A stretch of 64,000 bases of DNA from Neofusicoccum parvum (taxonomy: Eukaryota > Ascomycota > Dothideomycetes > Botryosphaeriales > Botryosphaeriaceae), in the NCBI GenBank assembly GCA_020912385.1, contig CP087217.1, positions 1,178,001 through 1,242,000 of the forward strand, read 5' to 3'. A program made the translations under genes and the position numbers. Shown piece after piece: positions 26,576 to 45,140 of the stretch (positions within the stretch are counted from its first letter, which is position 1; each line of letters starts with the position of its first letter). The notes beneath the pieces were generated by a model. It was given only the letters and a program-made list of their open reading frames with translations. It did no database searches and was not told the origin of the DNA.

Positions 26576-28297
26576 CTAACGAATGCGAAATCTCTGCGGA
26601 GGGATATTTTTCTTGATACACAAGTCCATGAACTCCCCTTCCATGATTCCATTAACCTGGATGGGACAAACAAAGGAGTACTCTGAAGAGCCAGGCGCAA
26701 ATGATCTGAGAACGACTGGAGAGGAACAACCAAGCATCACGCACACTATGTCGCCCTTCTGTGCCATATCGTTGGAAAACGCCGACCATTGCGTTGCTTT
26801 CAAAGGGAGTTGAGCTACCCTGGGACTTTTATCTCTCATTGACTCGTTGAACCTCTCCACCTCTTTCTCTACATCAGTCGTCTTACGGAATTCTGCGAAG
26901 TCGTTGTCGTCGTCCAATTTGACGCTCCCGTTTCCGGTGTAAAAAATCGGACAGTACAAATGCCCTGAAGCGATAAGGGTGAATGTACCACCGATTTTCT
27001 CGATACAATAGTCTGGCGCTGTCGATAATGAAGCTCGGCTCCTTTTATCTGGCAACGAGTCATAAATGCCTTCGTTCCCGCCGAAAGTTCCGCAGCGGCA
27101 GGAATTCCTGGCGCCAGCGCCCAGGCAGGGAAGCCAGGATTCGGCGCCGTTCAAGTCCGCGGATGGGTAATGCTTCGCACGAAACATGAAGTCTAAACTC
27201 CCAGCACTGTCCACGATGACCTTGAAGCATTGCACGAAAACATCCTCAACAGTGGTGTTCTTTGAGTAGTCGGGGATGATTGCTTGACGGATTTCATCCT
27301 TGAGCAGGGACAATAGTGAGTACACTATATCCCGAGGATCGTAGCAGCTTGATGAGAAGAACTTGGTGCAGATATGTTCGAGATTCAGCTCGGATGATTC
27401 TGTGTCTCTCTCGATGACGCCCCGAATATCGTGAATTGCCGAAACAAGGTGAACTGTCGCGTGAGTTTTCTGTGATATTGGGGCCAGGTGTCCAGAGTTT
27501 GATTCTCGGAGGAGAATCTCAGAGACCCTCGGAAGGTTACACCACGGAATGACTCGATTCCCGCATAAGATCACTGGATCTCGAGCAAGAACAGCCTCTT
27601 GAATGATCCATCTTCTCCCGAACCAAGGCCGCTGCAGGAGGTTGCATAGCGCATCCCAGTGAGCCGTCCAAGAGCGGGTTTCCTCGATGAATTTTTCATG
27701 GTCGATGTCGCGGTGGCGACACGCGCCGTCATGTCTTGAAAATTTCGAATACTCGTCCAGGAGATCTGCAGCAAGCTCACTTTGATCTGTACTGTCTCCC
27801 AGCCAGACGCTTACGTACTTGGCGCCTTTGTACACTAGGTCCATGCGTCGTACCTGGTGGCTCTTTTCTTCATCGTCTGCTTGATTGATACAGATCCCGT
27901 CCGCCCAAGCGCACCAGCCTTCGTTTGGTTGTCTGAGATGACGGAGTGCCTTCTCCAGATTGGAACTGATGCGAAGCTTTCGACGGACGGGGAAATAATT
28001 CTCCATAGCAGTAACCGGATCTGACGGGAGGGTGTTCTGCACGTCGTTTTTTCTTTGGATATGATATGGAGTTTTTGGGTCGAATCTCAGTCTAACCTCG
28101 ACCTCAGCATCTTGCCTCTGGTCTCCCCATGCATATGACAATGCATCGTAGTTGATAGTTCTCTTCGCGCCAAGGTCCATAATCTCGATTCCCATGCGTA
28201 GCGGAGCCTCTGGGGGATCCGGGAATATAACCAACACCCGCGTCTGAGCGTCAGGGTGAGCCAAGGGCTCGTATGTGAACTTCAGGACGTCATCCAT
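26576..28297 (-). CDS. HET-domain (heterokaryon incompatibility) protein
   Basis: Intronless, 573 residues from ATG 28297; the frame is open further to 28414, but MDDVLKFTYEPL is the more typical start. The HET domain covers about 54-230 with its three blocks: YDALSYAWGD, then WCAWADGICINQADDEEK and RMDLVYKGAKYVSVWLGD, then RWIIQEAVLA. The C-terminal half has the usual helical part (SSCYDPRDIVYSLLSLL) and no added repeat or nucleotide-binding domain. HET domains trigger cell death when genetically different hyphae fuse, often downstream of NLR-like sensors. Which partner activates this one is unknown. Confidence 0.92.
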   Translation of the reverse strand: MDDVLKFTYEPLAHPDAQTRVLVIFPDPPEAPLRMGIEIMDLGAKRTINYDALSYAWGDQRQDAEVEVRLRFDPKTPYHIQRKNDVQNTLPSDPVTAMENYFPVRRKLRISSNLEKALRHLRQPNEGWCAWADGICINQADDEEKSHQVRRMDLVYKGAKYVSVWLGDSTDQSELAADLLDEYSKFSRHDGACRHRDIDHEKFIEETRSWTAHWDALCNLLQRPWFGRRWIIQEAVLARDPVILCGNRVIPWCNLPRVSEILLRESNSGHLAPISQKTHATVHLVSAIHDIRGVIERDTESSELNLEHICTKFFSSSCYDPRDIVYSLLSLLKDEIRQAIIPDYSKNTTVEDVFVQCFKVIVDSAGSLDFMFRAKHYPSADLNGAESWLPCLGAGARNSCRCGTFGGNEGIYDSLPDKRSRASLSTAPDYCIEKIGGTFTLIASGHLYCPIFYTGNGSVKLDDDNDFAEFRKTTDVEKEVERFNESMRDKSPRVAQLPLKATQWSAFSNDMAQKGDIVCVMLGCSSPVVLRSFAPGSSEYSFVCPIQVNGIMEGEFMDLCIKKNIPPQRFRIR

Positions 28298-29003
28298 GGG
28301 TTTCTGCGTGAAATACACGGTCCAAATTTGGTTGAAAGAGGCAGTAAGGGAAATCGAGTAACGGGAGATCATCAGAAGGTTGAAATAATCCCGATTCAGG
28401 AGTTTGGTCATCAATTTGGCTAAACGAAAGGAATCCGATCATGTTTCGACAGGCAGTGTGGAATATTTAAATAGTGGGAGGGTAAACTTCCGCGGCGTTG
28501 AACGTGTGGGGTTTGTGGGGGCTGGAACCAATGCCATTCAATTGCGCATTCCTGGAAAACCAGGTGTGAGTTGGCAGGTAAGCCGTAAGCCGTTCCTGGA
28601 AGTTGCTAGCATATTATGTTCCCTTTTTGCACTAGTAGCCTTCTTTTTCTTTCAGAAAAGCAAAGAGATTACTGCAAGGCTGAACAATGTTGGGTGGGGG
28701 CCCTGATGAACCACTGAACTTTGATAGTGATAACAAAAGAAAGCGATGGAGAACTTACTGTTGCTCAAACAAGAAATAGAAAATGCTTCCCTTTTAAGAT
28801 TCCCCTGCACAACTTAGAATCATGCCACATACAGATATAGCTGCCACCACGAATGTCTTGGAGGATTGGAGGAATTGATTTAGGGTCATATCAAACGTGA
28901 ATGTCAAAATATAGAGCCTCATACACATATATTACACACCCCCGGTTTGACAAACGTATATCGCCGACGGAAGCCGGTGTACACCACCACTCCCCAAAAT
29001 TCC
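28298..29003. other. intergenic, no gene recognised
   Basis: Holds the HET gene promoter side and the 3' flank of the saponin-hydrolase-like gene. An AT-rich TATTTAAATA palindrome lies near 28463-28472. No gene was seen. Confidence 0.5.
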
Positions 29004-31209: not shown

Positions 31210-32862
31210 ATGGCTCAACCAACTACTACTCGATCAACCTACAACGAAGCAGATATCTTCCTCGCTATCTTAGCTATTGATAAGAAGCAGATCCGGAGCG
31301 TAAAGCGCGCTGCATCAACGTTCAACATCCCCCGAACCACGCTCCGCGACCGACGCGCTGGAGTCGCCTCACGACGCGATTGCGAGCCCAATTCAAAGAA
31401 GCTTACAAAATCCGAGGAGGAGGCAATTATTCAACACATACTTGACCTAGATTCGCGAGGCTTTGCGCCTACGTTGGATGCAGTGCGGGATATGGCTAAT
31501 AAACTGCTTGCTGAGCGCGCTGCTGGGCAGGTTGGCACGCATTGGCCAAGGAACTTTGTTGGGCGGACTCCGCAACTCAAAACTCAATTGAATCGACCGT
31601 ATGATCGCCAGCGGGCCTTGTGTGAGGATCCTAAGGTCCTTAGCGAGTGGTTTAAGCTTGTACAGCGTACGAAGGAGAAGTACGGCATCCTTGACGAAGA
31701 CACCCACAACTTCGACGAGACTGGCTTTATGATAGGCAAGATATTGGCTCAGCTCGTTGTTACAGGCTCGGAGAGGCGCAATCGACCAAAGGCGGTACAG
31801 CCAGGCGACCGTGAGTGGGTGACTGTCATCCAAGGAATCAACGCTGCTGGGTGGGCAATTCCACTATTCATTATCTTCGCGGCCAAGCACCACCTCTCTG
31901 CCTGGTATGGGGACGACGATATACCTGGCGATTGGGCCATCGCAGTTAGTGACAACGGCTGGACAACGAATGAGCTTAGGGTTGCGTGGCTAAAACACTT
32001 CAACAAGCATACGAAGGCGCGTACGGTAGGGACGTATCGGCTGCTGATTATCGACGGCCACGAGAGCCACAACTCGCTTGAATTCCAGGCGATCTGTAAG
32101 GAGGAGAAGATTATCACCCTCTGTATACCTCCACATTCGTCGCATCTACTCCAGCCGCTTGATGTAGGCTGCTTCTCGCCGTTGAAGCGCGCGTATGGGG
32201 ATCAGATTAGAGGCTTGGCGCGCAACCACATCAACCATATCACCAAGCTTGAGTTCCTACCAGCCTTTAAAGCAGCCTTTAATAAGTCAATTATAAAGGC
32301 TAACATCTGCGCAAGCTTTCGAGGAGCTGGGCTAGTGCCGTACGACCCAGATGCGGTGCTATTAAAGCTTGAGGTGAAGCTTCGTACGCCAACACCACCA
32401 GCTGCCCTAGAGGCTGCTCTATGGGAGTCGAAAACACCAAGCAACGCGCGAGAACTAGAGTCCCAATCAACCCTAATTCGCGATCGGATTCAAAGGTACC
32501 AAGATTCATCGCCTACTTCAATGATTAAGTCGCTTAATCGGCTTACCAAGGGGGCTCAGCTGATGGTGCATGAGATAGTCTTGTTACGCGATCAGGTCTC
32601 CAGCCTTTAGAAGGCAAATGAGGCTGCCACGAAGCGTAAACAGCGCAAAAGAAAGCGGATCTAGAAGCGAGGCACCTTAACAAAGGTAGAGGATGAGGAA
32701 ATTATTGCTCAAAAGGACGTTAATGAGCAACTTGAGGGCGAAATGCGTCGAGGCAAGGCGCGATCTGGTGTGAGTAGGCAGCAAACAGCGCGCTGTAGGC
32801 GCTGTAGGGAGCCAGGGCACAATTCTCGTACGTGCCAAAAAGATACTGTGGAGGCTTCTTAA
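31210..32862 (+). pseudogene. pogo-family DDE transposase with two in-frame TAG codons
   Basis: From ATG 31210 the frame is open for 466 codons to TAG at 32608. It continues in the same frame through a second TAG (32662) to TAA at 32860-32862, about 551 codons in all. Order of parts: helix-turn-helix (ILAIDKKQIRSVKRAASTFN, RTTLRDRR), a CENP-B/Tc5-like binding domain, the DDE catalytic core (NFDETGFMIG, VSDNGWTTNEL, LLIIDGHESHNS, PPHSSHLLQPLDVG), and a C-terminal zinc knuckle, CRRCREPGHNSRTC, beyond both stops. The catalytic core is intact upstream of the stops. Both stops look like CAG-to-TAG changes. The shortened 466-residue product might still fold but lacks the knuckle. Confidence 0.9.
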
Positions 32863-37033: not shown

Positions 37034-38523
37034 ATGTGCGTCGCCCCCTCCGTCGCCGTACAGCCGTAGCCGGCAGAAGCTGACCCCACCCTCGCGCAGG
37101 CTCTCCGGCATTCTCATCTTCAACCAAAAGGGCGAGAACCTCATCTTCCGCGCCTTTCGCAACGACTGCCGCCCGCGCCTCGCCGATGTCTTCCGCATCC
37201 AGGTAATCAGCAATGCCCAGGTCCGGTCGCCCATCCTCACGTTGGGCTCCACCACCTTCAGCCATGTGAAGCACGAGAACATCTACCTGGTCGCTGTCAC
37301 CAAGAGCAATGCCAACGCCGCCCTGGTCTTCGAGTTCCTGTACCGCCTGGTCGGCCTGGGCAAGGCCTACTTCGGTAAATTTGACGAGGAGGCCGTTAAG
37401 AACAACTTCGTGCTAGTCTACGAGCTTCTCGATGGTGCGTTCGGAACAAGCTATATACAATAGGAGGGGCACACAGGGCTGACGCCGGACACAGAGATCC
37501 TCGATTTCGGATACCCGCAAAACACGGAGACGGAGACGCTGAAGATGTACATCACGACCGAGGGTGTCAAATCGGAGCGGGCAATGGTACGCGCGAGAAT
37601 GCTCGGACGGAAATGGAGCACACGGCTGACAATCCCCGCAGGAGGACTCTTCGAAGATCACCATGCAGGCCACCGGCGCGCTCTCCTGGCGGCGATCCGA
37701 CATCAAGTACCGCAAGAACGAAGCCTTCGTCGACGTCATCGAGGACGTGAACCTCCTCATGTCCGCAACCGGCACCGTCCTACGCGCCGACGTCAACGGA
37801 CAGATCATCATGCGGGCCTACCTCTCCGGCACGCCCGAATGCAAGTTCGGCCTGAACGACCGCCTCACCCTGGGCGAAGACAGCCTCTCGGCACCGTCCG
37901 GTAACCGCGCCGGCACCAAGGCCACGCGTGCCGCCGCCGGCTCCGTCACGCTCGAGGACTGCCAGTTCCACCAGTGCGTGAAGCTGGGCAAGTTCGACAC
38001 GGACCGCATCATCAGCTTCGTGCCGCCGGACGGCGAGTTCGAGCTGATGCGGTACCGCGCGACCGAGAACGTCAACCTGCCCTTCAAGGTCCACGCCATC
38101 GTCAACGAGGTCGGCAAGACCAAGGTCGAGTACAGCATCGCCATCCGCGCCAACTACGGCTCCAAGCTGTTCGCGACCAACGTCGTCGTGCGCATCCCGA
38201 CGCCGCTCAACACGGCCAACATCAGCTCGCGCACCAGCCAGGGCAAGGCCAAGTACGAGCCCGAGCACAACAACATCGTCTGGAAGATCCCCCGCTTCAC
38301 CGGCCAGAGCGAGTACGTCCTGTCGGCCGAGGCCACCCTGACCAGCATGACCAACCAGAAGGCCTGGTCGCGTCCGCCGCTCAGCCTGAGCTTCTCCCTG
38401 CTCATGTTCACCAGCTCCGGCTTGCTGGTCCGCTACCTGAAGGTGTTCGAGAAGAGCAACTACAGCAGCGTCAAGTGGGTCCGGTACATGACGCGCGCCG
38501 GCAATTACGAGATCAGGTTTTAA
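37034..38523 (+). CDS. AP-2 clathrin adaptor complex subunit mu
   Basis: Exons 37034-37035, 37100-37434, 37495-37586 and 37642-38523 give 436 residues; human AP2M1 has 435. The start codon appears to be split: AT ends exon 1 before a GTGCGT donor, and G opens exon 2 after CGCAG, giving MLSGILIFNQKGENLI. The N-terminal longin domain covers about 1-140. The C-terminal mu homology domain includes SWRRSDIKYRKNEAFVDVIE, SGTPECKFGLNDRL and VKWVRYMTRAGNYEIRF. The GYPQNTETETLK segment favours AP-2 over AP-1. The subunit binds YxxPhi cargo signals at the plasma membrane during endocytosis. Confidence 0.95.
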
Positions 38524-41212: not shown

Positions 41213-42613
41213 TTACTTCTTGAGCGCGCGGCCCGCGATGTCCTTGCGGAACTGCATGCCCTCGAAATGGATGGCCTCGACGCCCTTGTAGGCTTTCTGA
41301 ACTGCCTCCTCCAGAGTGGGCGCCCACGCTGTTGATGCGATGACACGACCACCGGAAGTGCGCAGGACACCATCCTTCAGCGAAGTGCCAGCGTGGAAGT
41401 GAACGGTATCTAGAGCTGGTTAGATCACGGTGGAACGAGTCCGCGTAGAATCACCCACCATTTGGCACCGGGTCGAGATTCATCTCTGCACCCTTCTTGT
41501 ACGAGCCAGGGTAGCCACCCGCAGCAACCACGACAGTTGCAGCACTCTTCTCTCCCACTTTGAGGTCGACACTCCCCAGCTTACCCTCAGTGCTAGCCAG
41601 CATGACCTCAGCAAGATCACTGTCCATGAGGGGCAGCAGCGACTGGGTCTCGGGATCACCGAAGCGGACGTTGTACTCCAAAACCTTGGGTCCGTTCTTG
41701 GTCATCATAAGACCAGTGAACAGACAGCCAACCATGGGGTAGCCTATCAAGGTAGCCATCAGCTGACTGCGACTTCAAGCATGCATGGCATCTTGAGCAT
41801 GAACATACCCTCGGCACGCATGCCGTCAACGGTGGGCTGCAGCACTTTCTTGTGGACCTCGTCCACAATCTCTTTGGGAGCGATGCGCGTGGGTGAGTAG
41901 GTGCCCATGCCACCAGTGTTGGGGCCCTGATCGCCATCGAAGATGCGCTTGTGGTCCTGAGCCGGGGGCAGGCTCTTGATGGTAGTGCCGTCGCTGAAGG
42001 TCAGGATGCTAAGCTCGTCGCCCTCGAGGAACTCCTCGATGACGACCTCGTCACCGGCAGAGCCGAACTCACGGTCCAGCATTATATCCTTCAGCGCCTG
42101 GTGCGCCTCTTCCTTCGTGGTGGGGATGATGACGCCCTTGCCGGCAGCCAGGCCAGAAGCCTTGATGACGACGGGGTGCGAGACACTGTCGAGGTAGGCA
42201 CGGGCGGCGTCGTGGGAAGTGAAGTTCTGGTAGGCGGCAGTGGGGATGTTGTGGCGGTGCATGAAGTCCTTGGAGAAGGTCTTGCTGCCCTCCATGCGGG
42301 CAGCGCTGCCAGAGGGACCGAAGCAGCGGATCTGCGGCGCATGCTTGTTGAAGTGGTCGACAATGCCATCGACGAGCGGCGCCTCGGGGCCGGGGATGAG
42401 GAGGTTCACGTTGTTCTCGAGGGCGAACTTGCTGAGGGCGGGGAAGTCGTCGGCCGCGACGGAGTCGACGTTCTGGGTCTTGGTGAGGGCGCCGGTGCCG
42501 CCATTGCCGGGCACGACAAAAATCTGGTCGATGCGGGGAGACTGCGAGAGCTTCCAGGCAATGGCGTGTTCTCTGCCGCCGTTGCCAACGAGGAGGACGC
42601 GCGTGTCGACCAT
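41213..42613 (-). CDS. monofunctional phosphoribosylamine-glycine ligase (GARS, PurD-type)
   Basis: Three exons, 42613-41809, 41743-41459 and 41409-41213, give 428 residues, the size of bacterial PurD (429). It joins phosphoribosylamine and glycine with ATP, purine step 2. Landmarks: LLVGNGGREHAIAWKL at the start, the ATP-grasp KASGLAAGKGVI, GPNTGGMGTYSP, EYNVRFGDPETQ and the end HFEGMQFRKDIAGRALKK before TAA. In most fungi this domain is followed in the same chain by AIRS (Ade5,7). Here it stops at the domain boundary, and no AIRS lies downstream. The ATG at 42613 is chosen over the open upstream frame to 42793 because MVDTRVLLVGNGG fits the family. It diverges from the homoserine kinase-AIRS gene. 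Confidence 0.95.
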
Positions 42614-42735
42614 TGTGTCGGATGGGGGTGCTGGAGGTGCTGGTGCTCTGGGTGCCCCGCGGTTTGGCTTGAAATTTTGGTGGATCAGGGCCGATTGCGG
42701 GGCAGCAGCTGGAACTTTTCTGTAGGGCTGAGCCA

Positions 42736-42747
42736 CCAATGTGACTC
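42736..42747 (+). promoter_or_regulatory. CCAAT box and TGACTC (Gcn4/CpcA or Bas1-type) site in shared promoter
   Basis: CCAAT (42736-42740) and TGACTC (42742-42747) sit near the middle of the 200 bp between the two divergent start codons. TGACTC is the core bound by Gcn4/CpcA (amino acid starvation) and, in yeast, by Bas1 at purine genes. One site could therefore serve both genes. No binding data are available. Confidence 0.5.
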
Positions 42748-42813
42748 GAACCACCGCCGCCCGCGCCCACAAACCTGCACAAGAACATCCCAAAATCGAG
42801 GACGCGGTGAGCC

Positions 42814-45140
42814 ATGGCGTGCGTTATCAAGGTGCCCTGCTCGTCCGCCAACATCGGCCCCGGCTTCGACGTCATCGGCCTCGCCCTGTCCGTCTACCTC
42901 GAGCTGCACGTCCAGCCCGACCCCTCCGCCGCCCAGCTCAACCCGCTCGGCTGCCGCGTTACCTACGAGGGCCAGGGCGAGGACGAAGTCAGCCTCGACC
43001 CCGAAGTCAATCTCGTCACCCGCGTCGCCCTCTACGTCCTCAAGTGCCACGGCCAGAGGAAGTTCCCCGGCACCCACGTCCACATCAAGAACCCCATTCC
43101 ATTGGGCAGAGGCTTGGGAAGCAGCGGTGCCGCAGTGGTAGGACTCGCCTGAGCTGTGCGACCTTGCTGCGAGCAGTGGCCAGCCTGCAAATGGCGAGCG
43201 CATGCAGAGGTCGCGTGTGGCAGCGGAGCCTGTTCGCCGCCCGCCTCGTACGACCGACATCGTGCTCGCCAGCGCTCAGCTGGCCATTGGCTGCGGCGGG
43301 ACATACACACACATTGTATCGGCTGATGCGTGTCTAGGTCGCCGGTGTGAACCTCGGAAATGAGGTGGGTAACCTGGGCCTGTCCAAGGCCCGCATGCTG
43401 GACTACTGTCTCATGATCGAGCGGCATCCGGACAATGTGGCCGCCGCTCTGTACGGTGGTTTCGTGGGCACCTACCTCAACGAGCTGGATCCGGCCGACA
43501 TGTCCCGCAAGGAGATTCCCCTGGCTGAGGTGCTGCCCGAGCCTGCTGGTGGCGTGGATACCGGCCTGCAGCCTCCGGAGCCGCCGCTCAACATCGGCCA
43601 CTACAAGAAGTTTAAGTGGGCGAAGGAGATCAAGTGCATTGCCATAATACCCCAGTTTGAGGTCTCGACGGCCAAGGCGAGAGGAGTCCTTCCCGACAAG
43701 TACAGCCGTGCCGACATGGTCTTCAACCTGCAGAGAATAGCTCTCCTCACTACCGCTCTCGGTGAATCTCCCCCAGACCCTGACATGATCTACGAGGGCA
43801 TGCAGGACAAGGTCCACCAACCCTACCGCAAGACCCTCATTCCAGGTCTCACTGAGATTCTCCAATCCGTTACCCCCAAGTCGCACCCTGGCCTTCTTGG
43901 TATCTGCTTGTCTGGCGCTGGTCCCACCATCCTGGCTTTGGCCACGCACAACTTCGACGGCATTGCGAACCATCTCATCAACGAGTTCAAGAAGGAGAAC
44001 ATCACCTGTGACTGGAAACTCTTAGAGCCCGCCGAGGATGGTACCACTGTCACTCGGAGCTCGTCTTCACAGCAGGAGGCTATGACCTACGCTTCTGCTG
44101 GTGTGAGCATTGATGCAGGAAACGAACTCGTCCAACGCATCAAGGCTTCCGTCAAGTCTACACGTCGTCCAGGTGCCGATGCTGACATTGGTGGCTTCGG
44201 AGGTACCTTTGATCTTGCTGCTGCCGGGTACAAGGAGGCTCCCATCCTCGTTGGAGCCATTGACGGAATTGGCACCAAGGTCAAGATCGCTTTCGAAATG
44301 GGCAAGCACGACACCGTTGGTATTGATCTCGTTGCCATGAATGTCAACGACCTTGTGGTCCAGGGTGCCGAGCCGCTCATGTTCCTCGACTACTACGCCT
44401 GCAGCAAGCTGGACGTCGATGCAGCTGCCGCCTTCGTCCACGGTGTCGCCGAGGGCTGCAAGCAATCCAACTGCACACTCGTTGGCGGCGAGACCGCTGA
44501 GATGCCTGGTCTCTACTCCGCCGGCGAGTATGACGCCGGCGGTGCCGCCATCGGTGCGCTCGCCCGCAGCCAGCCCATCCTCCCTGACACCGCCTCAATG
44601 GCCGAGGGCGACGTCCTCCTCGGCCTTGCCTCCAGCGGCCCGCACTCCAACGGCTTCAGCCTGATCCGCAAGATCGTCGAGCGCGCCGGCCTGACTTTCC
44701 ACGCGCCGGCTCCCTGGAGCCAGTCGGGCGAGACCGTCGGCGTCAGCCTGCTCACGCCGACCCGCATCTACGTCCGTCCTCTCCTCGCTGCCTCGCAGCA
44801 GCGTCTACTCAAGGGCATGGCGCATATCACTGGCGGCGGCCTCCTCGAGAACATCCCCCGCATGCTCCCCGCCCACCTCACCGCCGTCGTCGACGCCTCC
44901 ACCTACCCCGTTCCCCCTGTCTTCCGCTGGCTCAAGCAAGCTGGCGGCGTCGAGGACAAGGAGTTCTCACGCGCCTTCAACACCGGTCTCGGCATGGTGT
45001 GTGTGGTCGACAAGGCGAAGGTCGAGGCTGCGAAGAAGGTGTTGGAGGAGGCGGGAGAGAAGGTGTTCGTGGTGGGTGAGTTGGTGAAGAGGACGGGTGG
45101 AGAGGGTTGCGAGGTGAAGAACATGCAGGTGTGGAACTAA
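42814..45140 (+). CDS. homoserine kinase fused to AIR synthetase (AIRS, PurM-type)
   Basis: Two exons, 42814-43137 and 43338-45140, give 708 residues. Residues 1-348 are a complete GHMP homoserine kinase: CSSANIGPGFDVIGLALS, NPIPLGRGLGSSGAAVV, ERHPDNVAAALYGG, ICLSGAGPTILALA and the terminal CDWKLLEP. Without a stop codon the frame passes through a short linker (SSSSQQEAM, from 349) into a complete AIRS from about 358: YASAGVSIDAGNELVQRI, GAIDGIGTKVKIAFEMG, LVGGETAEMPGLYS, LASSGPHSNGFSL, HITGGGLLENIPR. The chain should catalyse both threonine synthesis (homoserine to phosphohomoserine) and purine step 5. The join lies inside exon 2, so it does not depend on a splice call. The intron is 200 nt, longer than its neighbours. 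Confidence 0.95.

What the first reader, a model, noticed from the sequence alone, without database searches (positions are those of the whole stretch)
42814..45140. Homoserine kinase fused in frame to AIR synthetase
A single exon runs from the end of homoserine kinase through a nine-residue linker into a complete AIRS domain, with no stop or splice site needed. AIRS in fungi is normally the C-terminal half of Ade5,7. A chain joining threonine and purine synthesis is, to my knowledge, not a standard architecture. Both domains keep their catalytic motifs.
Basis: partly seen in the sequence, partly recalled or inferred. Interest (0 to 1): 0.92.

Follow-up and report, generated by a model that had tools for sequence, protein, structure and literature searches.

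The report
Homoserine kinase fused to AIR synthetase
In this fungus an enzyme of threonine synthesis and an enzyme of purine synthesis are joined in one protein, and the same fusion recurs across the Dothideomycetes searched, whose usual two-part purine enzyme has been broken in two.

Summary
One gene (42814-45140, one 200-bp intron) encodes 708 residues: complete homoserine kinase, short linker, complete AIR synthetase. It is not a one-off: 120 of 120 listed homologues span the junction, and the 51 with an organism name are Dothideomycetes as far as I can tell. In the 44-Mb genome each of the three activities was found at this locus only. So the usual fungal Ade5,7 (GARS-AIRS) is split, and AIRS rides on homoserine kinase. 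Other Ascomycota keep GARS-AIRS; I recognise no Dothideomycete among the 120 listed GARS-AIRS hits. Linker remnants place the break within about five residues of the old GARS-AIRS linker. The simplest origin is one inversion of a divergent THR1/GARS block in an early dothideomycete; gene order outside the class could not be checked. The Met at the AIRS start is Leu or Ile in 71 of 121 rows, so a separate AIRS start is unlikely to be general. No paper on the fusion turned up in the open-access library searched.

The parts
42814..43137 (+). exon 1 of the fused gene: first 108 residues of homoserine kinase
43138..43337 (+). intron, 200 bp, GTAGGA...TCTAG
   Evidence: removal gives a protein that agrees with P0002 across the site
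43338..45140 (+). exon 2: rest of homoserine kinase, linker, AIR synthetase, stop
44058..44081 (+). linker codons (residues 349-356)
   Evidence: between the thrB and purM matches; poorly conserved, 0.49 mean majority share
44082..45140 (+). AIR synthetase domain (residues 357-708) and stop; the first codon is an internal ATG
   Evidence: TIGR00878; the Met is not conserved
42614..42813 (.). 200-bp region between the two divergent start codons, presumed shared promoter
   Evidence: position; promoter role inferred
41213..42613 (-). GARS-only gene, 428 residues; exons 42613-41809, 41743-41459, 41409-41213
   Evidence: TIGR00877 over residues 5-426. Intron 2 was chosen among several possible splice pairs (the one that keeps the domain longest without extra residues)

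Best explanation
The gene makes one bifunctional chain. Its N-terminal domain phosphorylates homoserine (threonine pathway) and its C-terminal domain closes FGAM to AIR (purine step 5). The domains most likely work independently on a flexible linker. It arose once, in an early dothideomycete: an ancestral head-to-head pair THR1 / ADE5,7 suffered one inversion with breakpoints at the 3' end of THR1 and in the GARS-AIRS linker. That turned '<-THR1 GARS-AIRS->' into '<-GARS THR1-AIRS->', kept the shared promoter, and joined THR1 in frame to AIRS. Because both enzymes are single copy and needed for growth without threonine and adenine, the accident was locked in. Shown: fused frame, single place for each activity, separate GARS, recurrence in many Dothideomycetes, GARS-AIRS kept outside, break inside the old linker, one fused clade. 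Inferred: expression as one chain, both activities, the ancestral divergent pair, and that the event was an inversion.
For: Fused frame and complete domains. One place each for purM, thrB and GARS in the genome. Junction covered in 120 of 120 listed homologues. GARS-only in 120 of 120 listed GARS hits (length-limited to 235-749 aa). GARS-AIRS in 120 of 120 listed hits of the joined probe, none a recognised Dothideomycete. GARS ends 7 residues after KDI in 86 of 120; fused AIRS keeps E (98 of 119) and A (83 of 119) before [L/M]TYA as canonical proteins do (E 91, A 73 of 117). 22 fused AIRS rows form one group, 100/95. GARS and the fusion lie on contigs of equal length in 5 of 29 species, on both sides of the first fork of the fused clade, and head to head 200 bp apart here. 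Frequent within-chromosome inversions in this class (PMC3516569 passages; PMC3219968 abstract).
Against: No transcript, peptide or activity data. Gene order outside the class was not seen, so the divergent ancestor is unproven. In 24 of 29 species the two genes are on contigs of different length, and in NU459 the gene numbers are 12 apart, so the tight pair might be a later state of Botryosphaeriales. The GARS tree is poorly resolved (GARS-only branch 52/100). Lists were capped at 120, and Arthoniomycetes, the sister class, were not seen by name.
Confidence: 0.72

Rival explanations
1. The locus gives two proteins: AIRS is made separately from the internal ATG at 44082, or the chain is cut in the linker, so the fusion exists only in the DNA and mRNA.
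For: An ATG stands exactly at the AIRS start, and Met is there in 50 of 121 rows. The linker is variable.
Against: The residue is Leu in 69 and Ile in 2 of 121 rows, and canonical proteins also have Leu there in 108 of 117, so Met is a common alternative to Leu and not a kept start. No other Met column present in more than 30 rows lies between residues 300 and 419. Cleavage cannot be excluded.
Confidence: 0.08
2. The fused gene is real and ancient, but arose otherwise than by one local inversion: for example AIRS moved to the end of THR1 by a longer or repeated rearrangement, and GARS came to lie beside it later.
For: The two genes are on contigs of different length in 24 of 29 species, and 12 gene numbers apart in NU459.
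Against: A single inversion explains the strand, the order, the 200-bp head-to-head spacing and the break in the linker together; contig-sharing species lie on both sides of the first fork.
Confidence: 0.18
3. Assembly or gene-model artefact: two neighbouring genes wrongly joined.
For: Some database models are evidently mis-joined, e.g. P0094, with a phosphoribosyltransferase after a cut AIRS_C.
Against: The frame is open in the DNA itself and the same junction is in 120 of 120 listed homologues from many genomes and metagenomes.
Confidence: 0.01

Closest known systems
Ade5,7 (GARS-AIRS), the usual fungal bifunctional purine enzyme
   Same: AIRS is the C-terminal domain of a two-enzyme chain; the AIRS part shows no shifted column among 124 conserved at 95% in both sets, and 1 of 148 at 90% (I/V at 419).
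   Different: The N-terminal partner is homoserine kinase; GARS is a separate, divergently transcribed gene.
Stand-alone homoserine kinase (ThrB / Thr1, GHMP kinase family)
   Same: Residues 4-348 match TIGR00191 over 2-303 of 304 positions.
   Different: Carries a second enzyme at its C-terminus. The solved homoserine kinases listed are all 331 aa or shorter.
Animal trifunctional GART (GARS-AIRS-GART)
   Same: AIRS as one domain of a multifunctional chain (fish row P0122; PMC10912719 passages).
   Different: All its domains belong to purine synthesis; the present chain joins two pathways.

Membership tests
Homoserine kinase (TIGR00191) | full-length profile match above the curated cut-off | tested here: met
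   347.6 bits against 168.25, profile 2-303 of 304
Homoserine kinase (TIGR00191) | GHMP ATP-binding motif (P-x-x-x-G-L-G-S-S type, recalled) | tested here: met
   IPLGRGLGSS in the product; I95-S104 invariant in 60 fused rows
Homoserine kinase (TIGR00191) | phosphorylates homoserine | not testable with these tools
   needs an assay or thr1 complementation
AIR synthetase / PurM (TIGR00878) | full-length profile match above the curated cut-off | tested here: met
   414.5 bits against 236.35, profile 1-331 of 332
AIR synthetase / PurM (TIGR00878) | conserved active-site segments (DGxGTK, GGETAEMP, HSNG; choice of segments recalled) | tested here: met
   present in the product; D417 G418 G420 T421 K422, G491-P498 and H544-G547 invariant in 60 fused rows
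AIR synthetase / PurM (TIGR00878) | forms AIR from FGAM | not testable with these tools
   needs an assay or complementation
Ade5,7 (GARS-AIRS) | GARS and AIRS on one chain | tested here: not met
   GARS is a separate divergent gene with its own stop codon; the only GARS and the only purM found in the genome are on opposite strands

The most novel reading that the evidence does not exclude
The fusion is not only a frozen accident: it couples threonine and purine supply. Threonine is a source of glycine (threonine aldolase, recalled), and glycine is the substrate of GARS, which here shares a 200-bp promoter region with the fused gene. One regulated locus would then set threonine-forming, glycine-consuming and AIR-forming capacity together, and the lost GARS:AIRS 1:1 ratio would be replaced by a kinase:AIRS ratio across the class.
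Probability: 0.12. Interest if true: 0.78.

Novelty: new variant of a known kind. Interest (0 to 1): 0.6.

Why it matters
It is a shared derived gene structure, a fission and a fusion in one, present in all Dothideomycetes I could recognise in the lists, and so a marker for placing disputed lineages. It is a candidate case of an inversion making a lasting fused gene in a class known for inversions, and gene order in outgroups would test this directly. It also bears on annotation: database names call GARS-only proteins 'bifunctional' and the fused one 'homoserine kinase' or 'ADE1'. In these fungi, loss of this one gene should give a double threonine and adenine requirement (inference).

Tried and rejected
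Artefact: rejected, since 120 of 120 listed homologues share the junction. Separate AIRS start: unlikely. Changed AIRS active site after fusion: none seen (0 of 124 columns at 95%, 1 of 148 at 90%; GARS for comparison 2 of 166 and 3 of 197; rows P0052, P0234 and P0237 were dropped because the start pattern failed, and fish P0122 was left out). Origin of AIRS by transfer from bacteria: the AIRS tree holds only fungal rows and one fish, so it shows one fused group beside fungal GARS-AIRS but does not test bacteria. GARS tree: weak, and row P0355 was cut wrongly because its N-terminus is another enzyme. Contig comparison: I left out Elasticomyces (several clusters) and genera whose two proteins came from different species; one of 120 contig lengths (P0015) was not typed in the all-against-all check.

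Literature: searches were seen as listings; nothing listed describes the fusion. PMC3219968: outline and abstract. PMC3516569: passages. PMC9925542: a term search with no occurrences. PMC6816169 and PMC10912719: passages, nothing on this fusion. A 2012 survey of fungal gene fusions by Leonard and Richards is recalled and was not seen; it may list this case.

Full report
What is there. The window is a 64-kb piece of a 44.0-Mb, 18-contig genome. Its GARS protein is 100% identical (rounded) to one of Neofusicoccum parvum UCRNP2, a member of Botryosphaeriales, Dothideomycetes. The gene at 42814-45140 has two exons (42814-43137, 43338-45140) and one intron of 200 bp, and encodes 708 residues. Homoserine kinase (TIGR00191) covers residues 4-348 and AIR synthetase (TIGR00878) covers 357-692, both almost the whole profile and above curated cut-offs. 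Pfam gives GHMP_kinases_N, GHMP_kinases_C, AIRS and AIRS_C in that order. The junction is inside exon 2. Within 43950-44200 the other two frames have stops between 44009 and 44183, and no GTRNGT...YAG intron fits there; that pattern would also miss the gene's own GTAGGA donor, so it is supporting evidence only.

The missed half. Directly upstream on the other strand is a GARS gene (start 42613, stop 41215-41213, two short introns, 428 residues). It matches TIGR00877 over residues 5-426 and ends there. The two start codons are 200 bp apart. In the whole genome the purM search gave one place; the GARS_A and thrB searches gave two matches each, which are two exons of the genes here. The tool calls its counts lower bounds for repeats and large families. 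Two other AIRS_C matches share one 1378-aa frame on another contig, which I take to be FGAM synthase (inference). So no Ade5,7 was found in this genome: its halves are separate, and the AIRS half is the tail of homoserine kinase.

How widespread. A search with residues 200-500 found 3596 proteins at E up to 0.001 and listed 120. All 120 cover 100% of the region at 76-96% identity; 115 carry PF00288 with both AIRS domains, and 5 shorter ones (573-582 aa) lack PF00288. Fifty-one listed rows have an organism name; all are Dothideomycetes as far as I can tell. Lineages were checked for Microthyrium, Coniosporium, Myriangium, Neophaeotheca, Elasticomyces, Saccharata and Glonium; the rest are recalled. 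A GARS search listed 120 proteins, none with an AIRS domain, mostly about 430 aa (Tothia lineage). That search admitted only 235-749 residues and so could not have shown full GARS-AIRS. The complementary search, a joined probe of GARS and AIRS, listed 120 proteins, all GARS-AIRS (one is a fish). Named rows include Xylonomycetes, Coniocybomycetes, Sareomycetes and Lichinomycetes, two of uncertain place, and Leotiomycetes, Eurotiomycetes, Sordariomycetes and Pezizomycetes (recalled). I recognise no Dothideomycete among the named rows; many rows have no name. The sister class Arthoniomycetes was not seen by name in any list.

Where the break fell. In canonical proteins, between the KDI near the GARS end and the T of TYA at the AIRS start, 15 residues is the commonest length (60 of the 110 of 117 in which KDI was found). 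GARS-only proteins most often end 7 residues after KDI (86 of 120; 7 have no KDI). Fused proteins keep the canonical E-A-[L/M] directly before TYA (E 98 of 119, A 83 of 119; canonical E 91 of 117, A 73 of 117). So about 7 residues stayed with GARS and 3 with AIRS, which leaves about 5 for the break. In a tree of 43 AIRS rows chosen by me, the 22 fused rows are one group at 100/95 against 20 canonical rows. GARS behaves likewise but is poorly resolved (52/100).

Why one inversion. If the ancestor had '<-THR1' and 'GARS-AIRS->' head to head, one inversion between the THR1 stop and the GARS-AIRS linker gives '<-GARS' and 'THR1-AIRS->' with the promoter region unchanged, which is the observed layout. 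GARS and the fusion lie on contigs of equal length in 5 of 29 species named in both lists: Lasiodiplodia, Aplosporella, Saccharata, Coniosporium apollinis and Dothideomycetes sp. NU459 (equal length is taken to mean the same contig). These sit on both sides of the first fork of the fused clade, so nearness is probably ancestral. In the other 24 the lengths differ, which fits later scattering but also other histories, and in NU459 the gene numbers differ by 12. Inversions within chromosomes are the described mode of genome change in this class (PMC3516569 passages; PMC3219968 abstract).

How it works. Conserved motifs of both enzymes are invariant in 60 fused rows. In 121 rows the mean majority share per column is 0.88 in the kinase, 0.83 in AIRS and 0.49 in the linker, whose length runs from 10 to 22 residues. 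AIRS has no column that shifted between fused and canonical proteins at the 95% level (0 of 124). This fits two independent catalytic domains on a flexible tether, each kept because it is the only copy (inference). An internal AIRS start is unlikely in general, because the Met is Leu or Ile in 71 of 121. The region between the genes holds one TGACTC (about 0.05 expected per 200 bp from the window) and one CCAAT; this is weak evidence for any shared control. No structure model could be made.

Literature. Searches listed no paper that describes this fusion. The domain layout is visible in public protein records, whose names are inconsistent. Subscription papers were not searched, so it may be in print there.

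Verdict. The finding is real and larger than described: a widespread fusion together with a fission of Ade5,7. Expression as one chain, both activities and the ancestral gene order remain to be shown.

Noticed in passing
protein P0355 (Microthyrium microscopicum): The GARS protein of this dothideomycete carries SAICAR synthetase at its N-terminus (19-277) before GARS (309-730), 732 aa: either a second purine-enzyme fusion after the split or a joined gene model.
   Followed up: partly
protein P0094 (Bipolaris maydis): Fused protein with an extra C-terminal phosphoribosyltransferase domain (731-838) after an incomplete AIRS_C match; probably a gene-model run-on.
   Followed up: partly
window 42736-42747: CCAAT and TGACTC (a Gcn4/Bas1-type core, recalled) stand side by side in the 200 bp between the two start codons.
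   Followed up: partly
proteins P0243, P0253, P0262, P0327, P0358: GARS-only proteins bear names that claim AIRS or a bifunctional enzyme, so names carried over from canonical Ade5,7 are misleading in this class.
   Followed up: no
window 31210-32610 (+): Open frame with a DDE_1 transposase domain and Tc5-type DNA-binding domain.
   Followed up: no
window 26576-28414 (-): Open frame with a HET (heterokaryon incompatibility) domain.
   Followed up: no
window 37663-38523 (+) and about 40800-39535 (-): Adaptor-complex medium subunit, and pieces of a V-ATPase subunit f-like gene in several exons, next beyond GARS.
   Followed up: no
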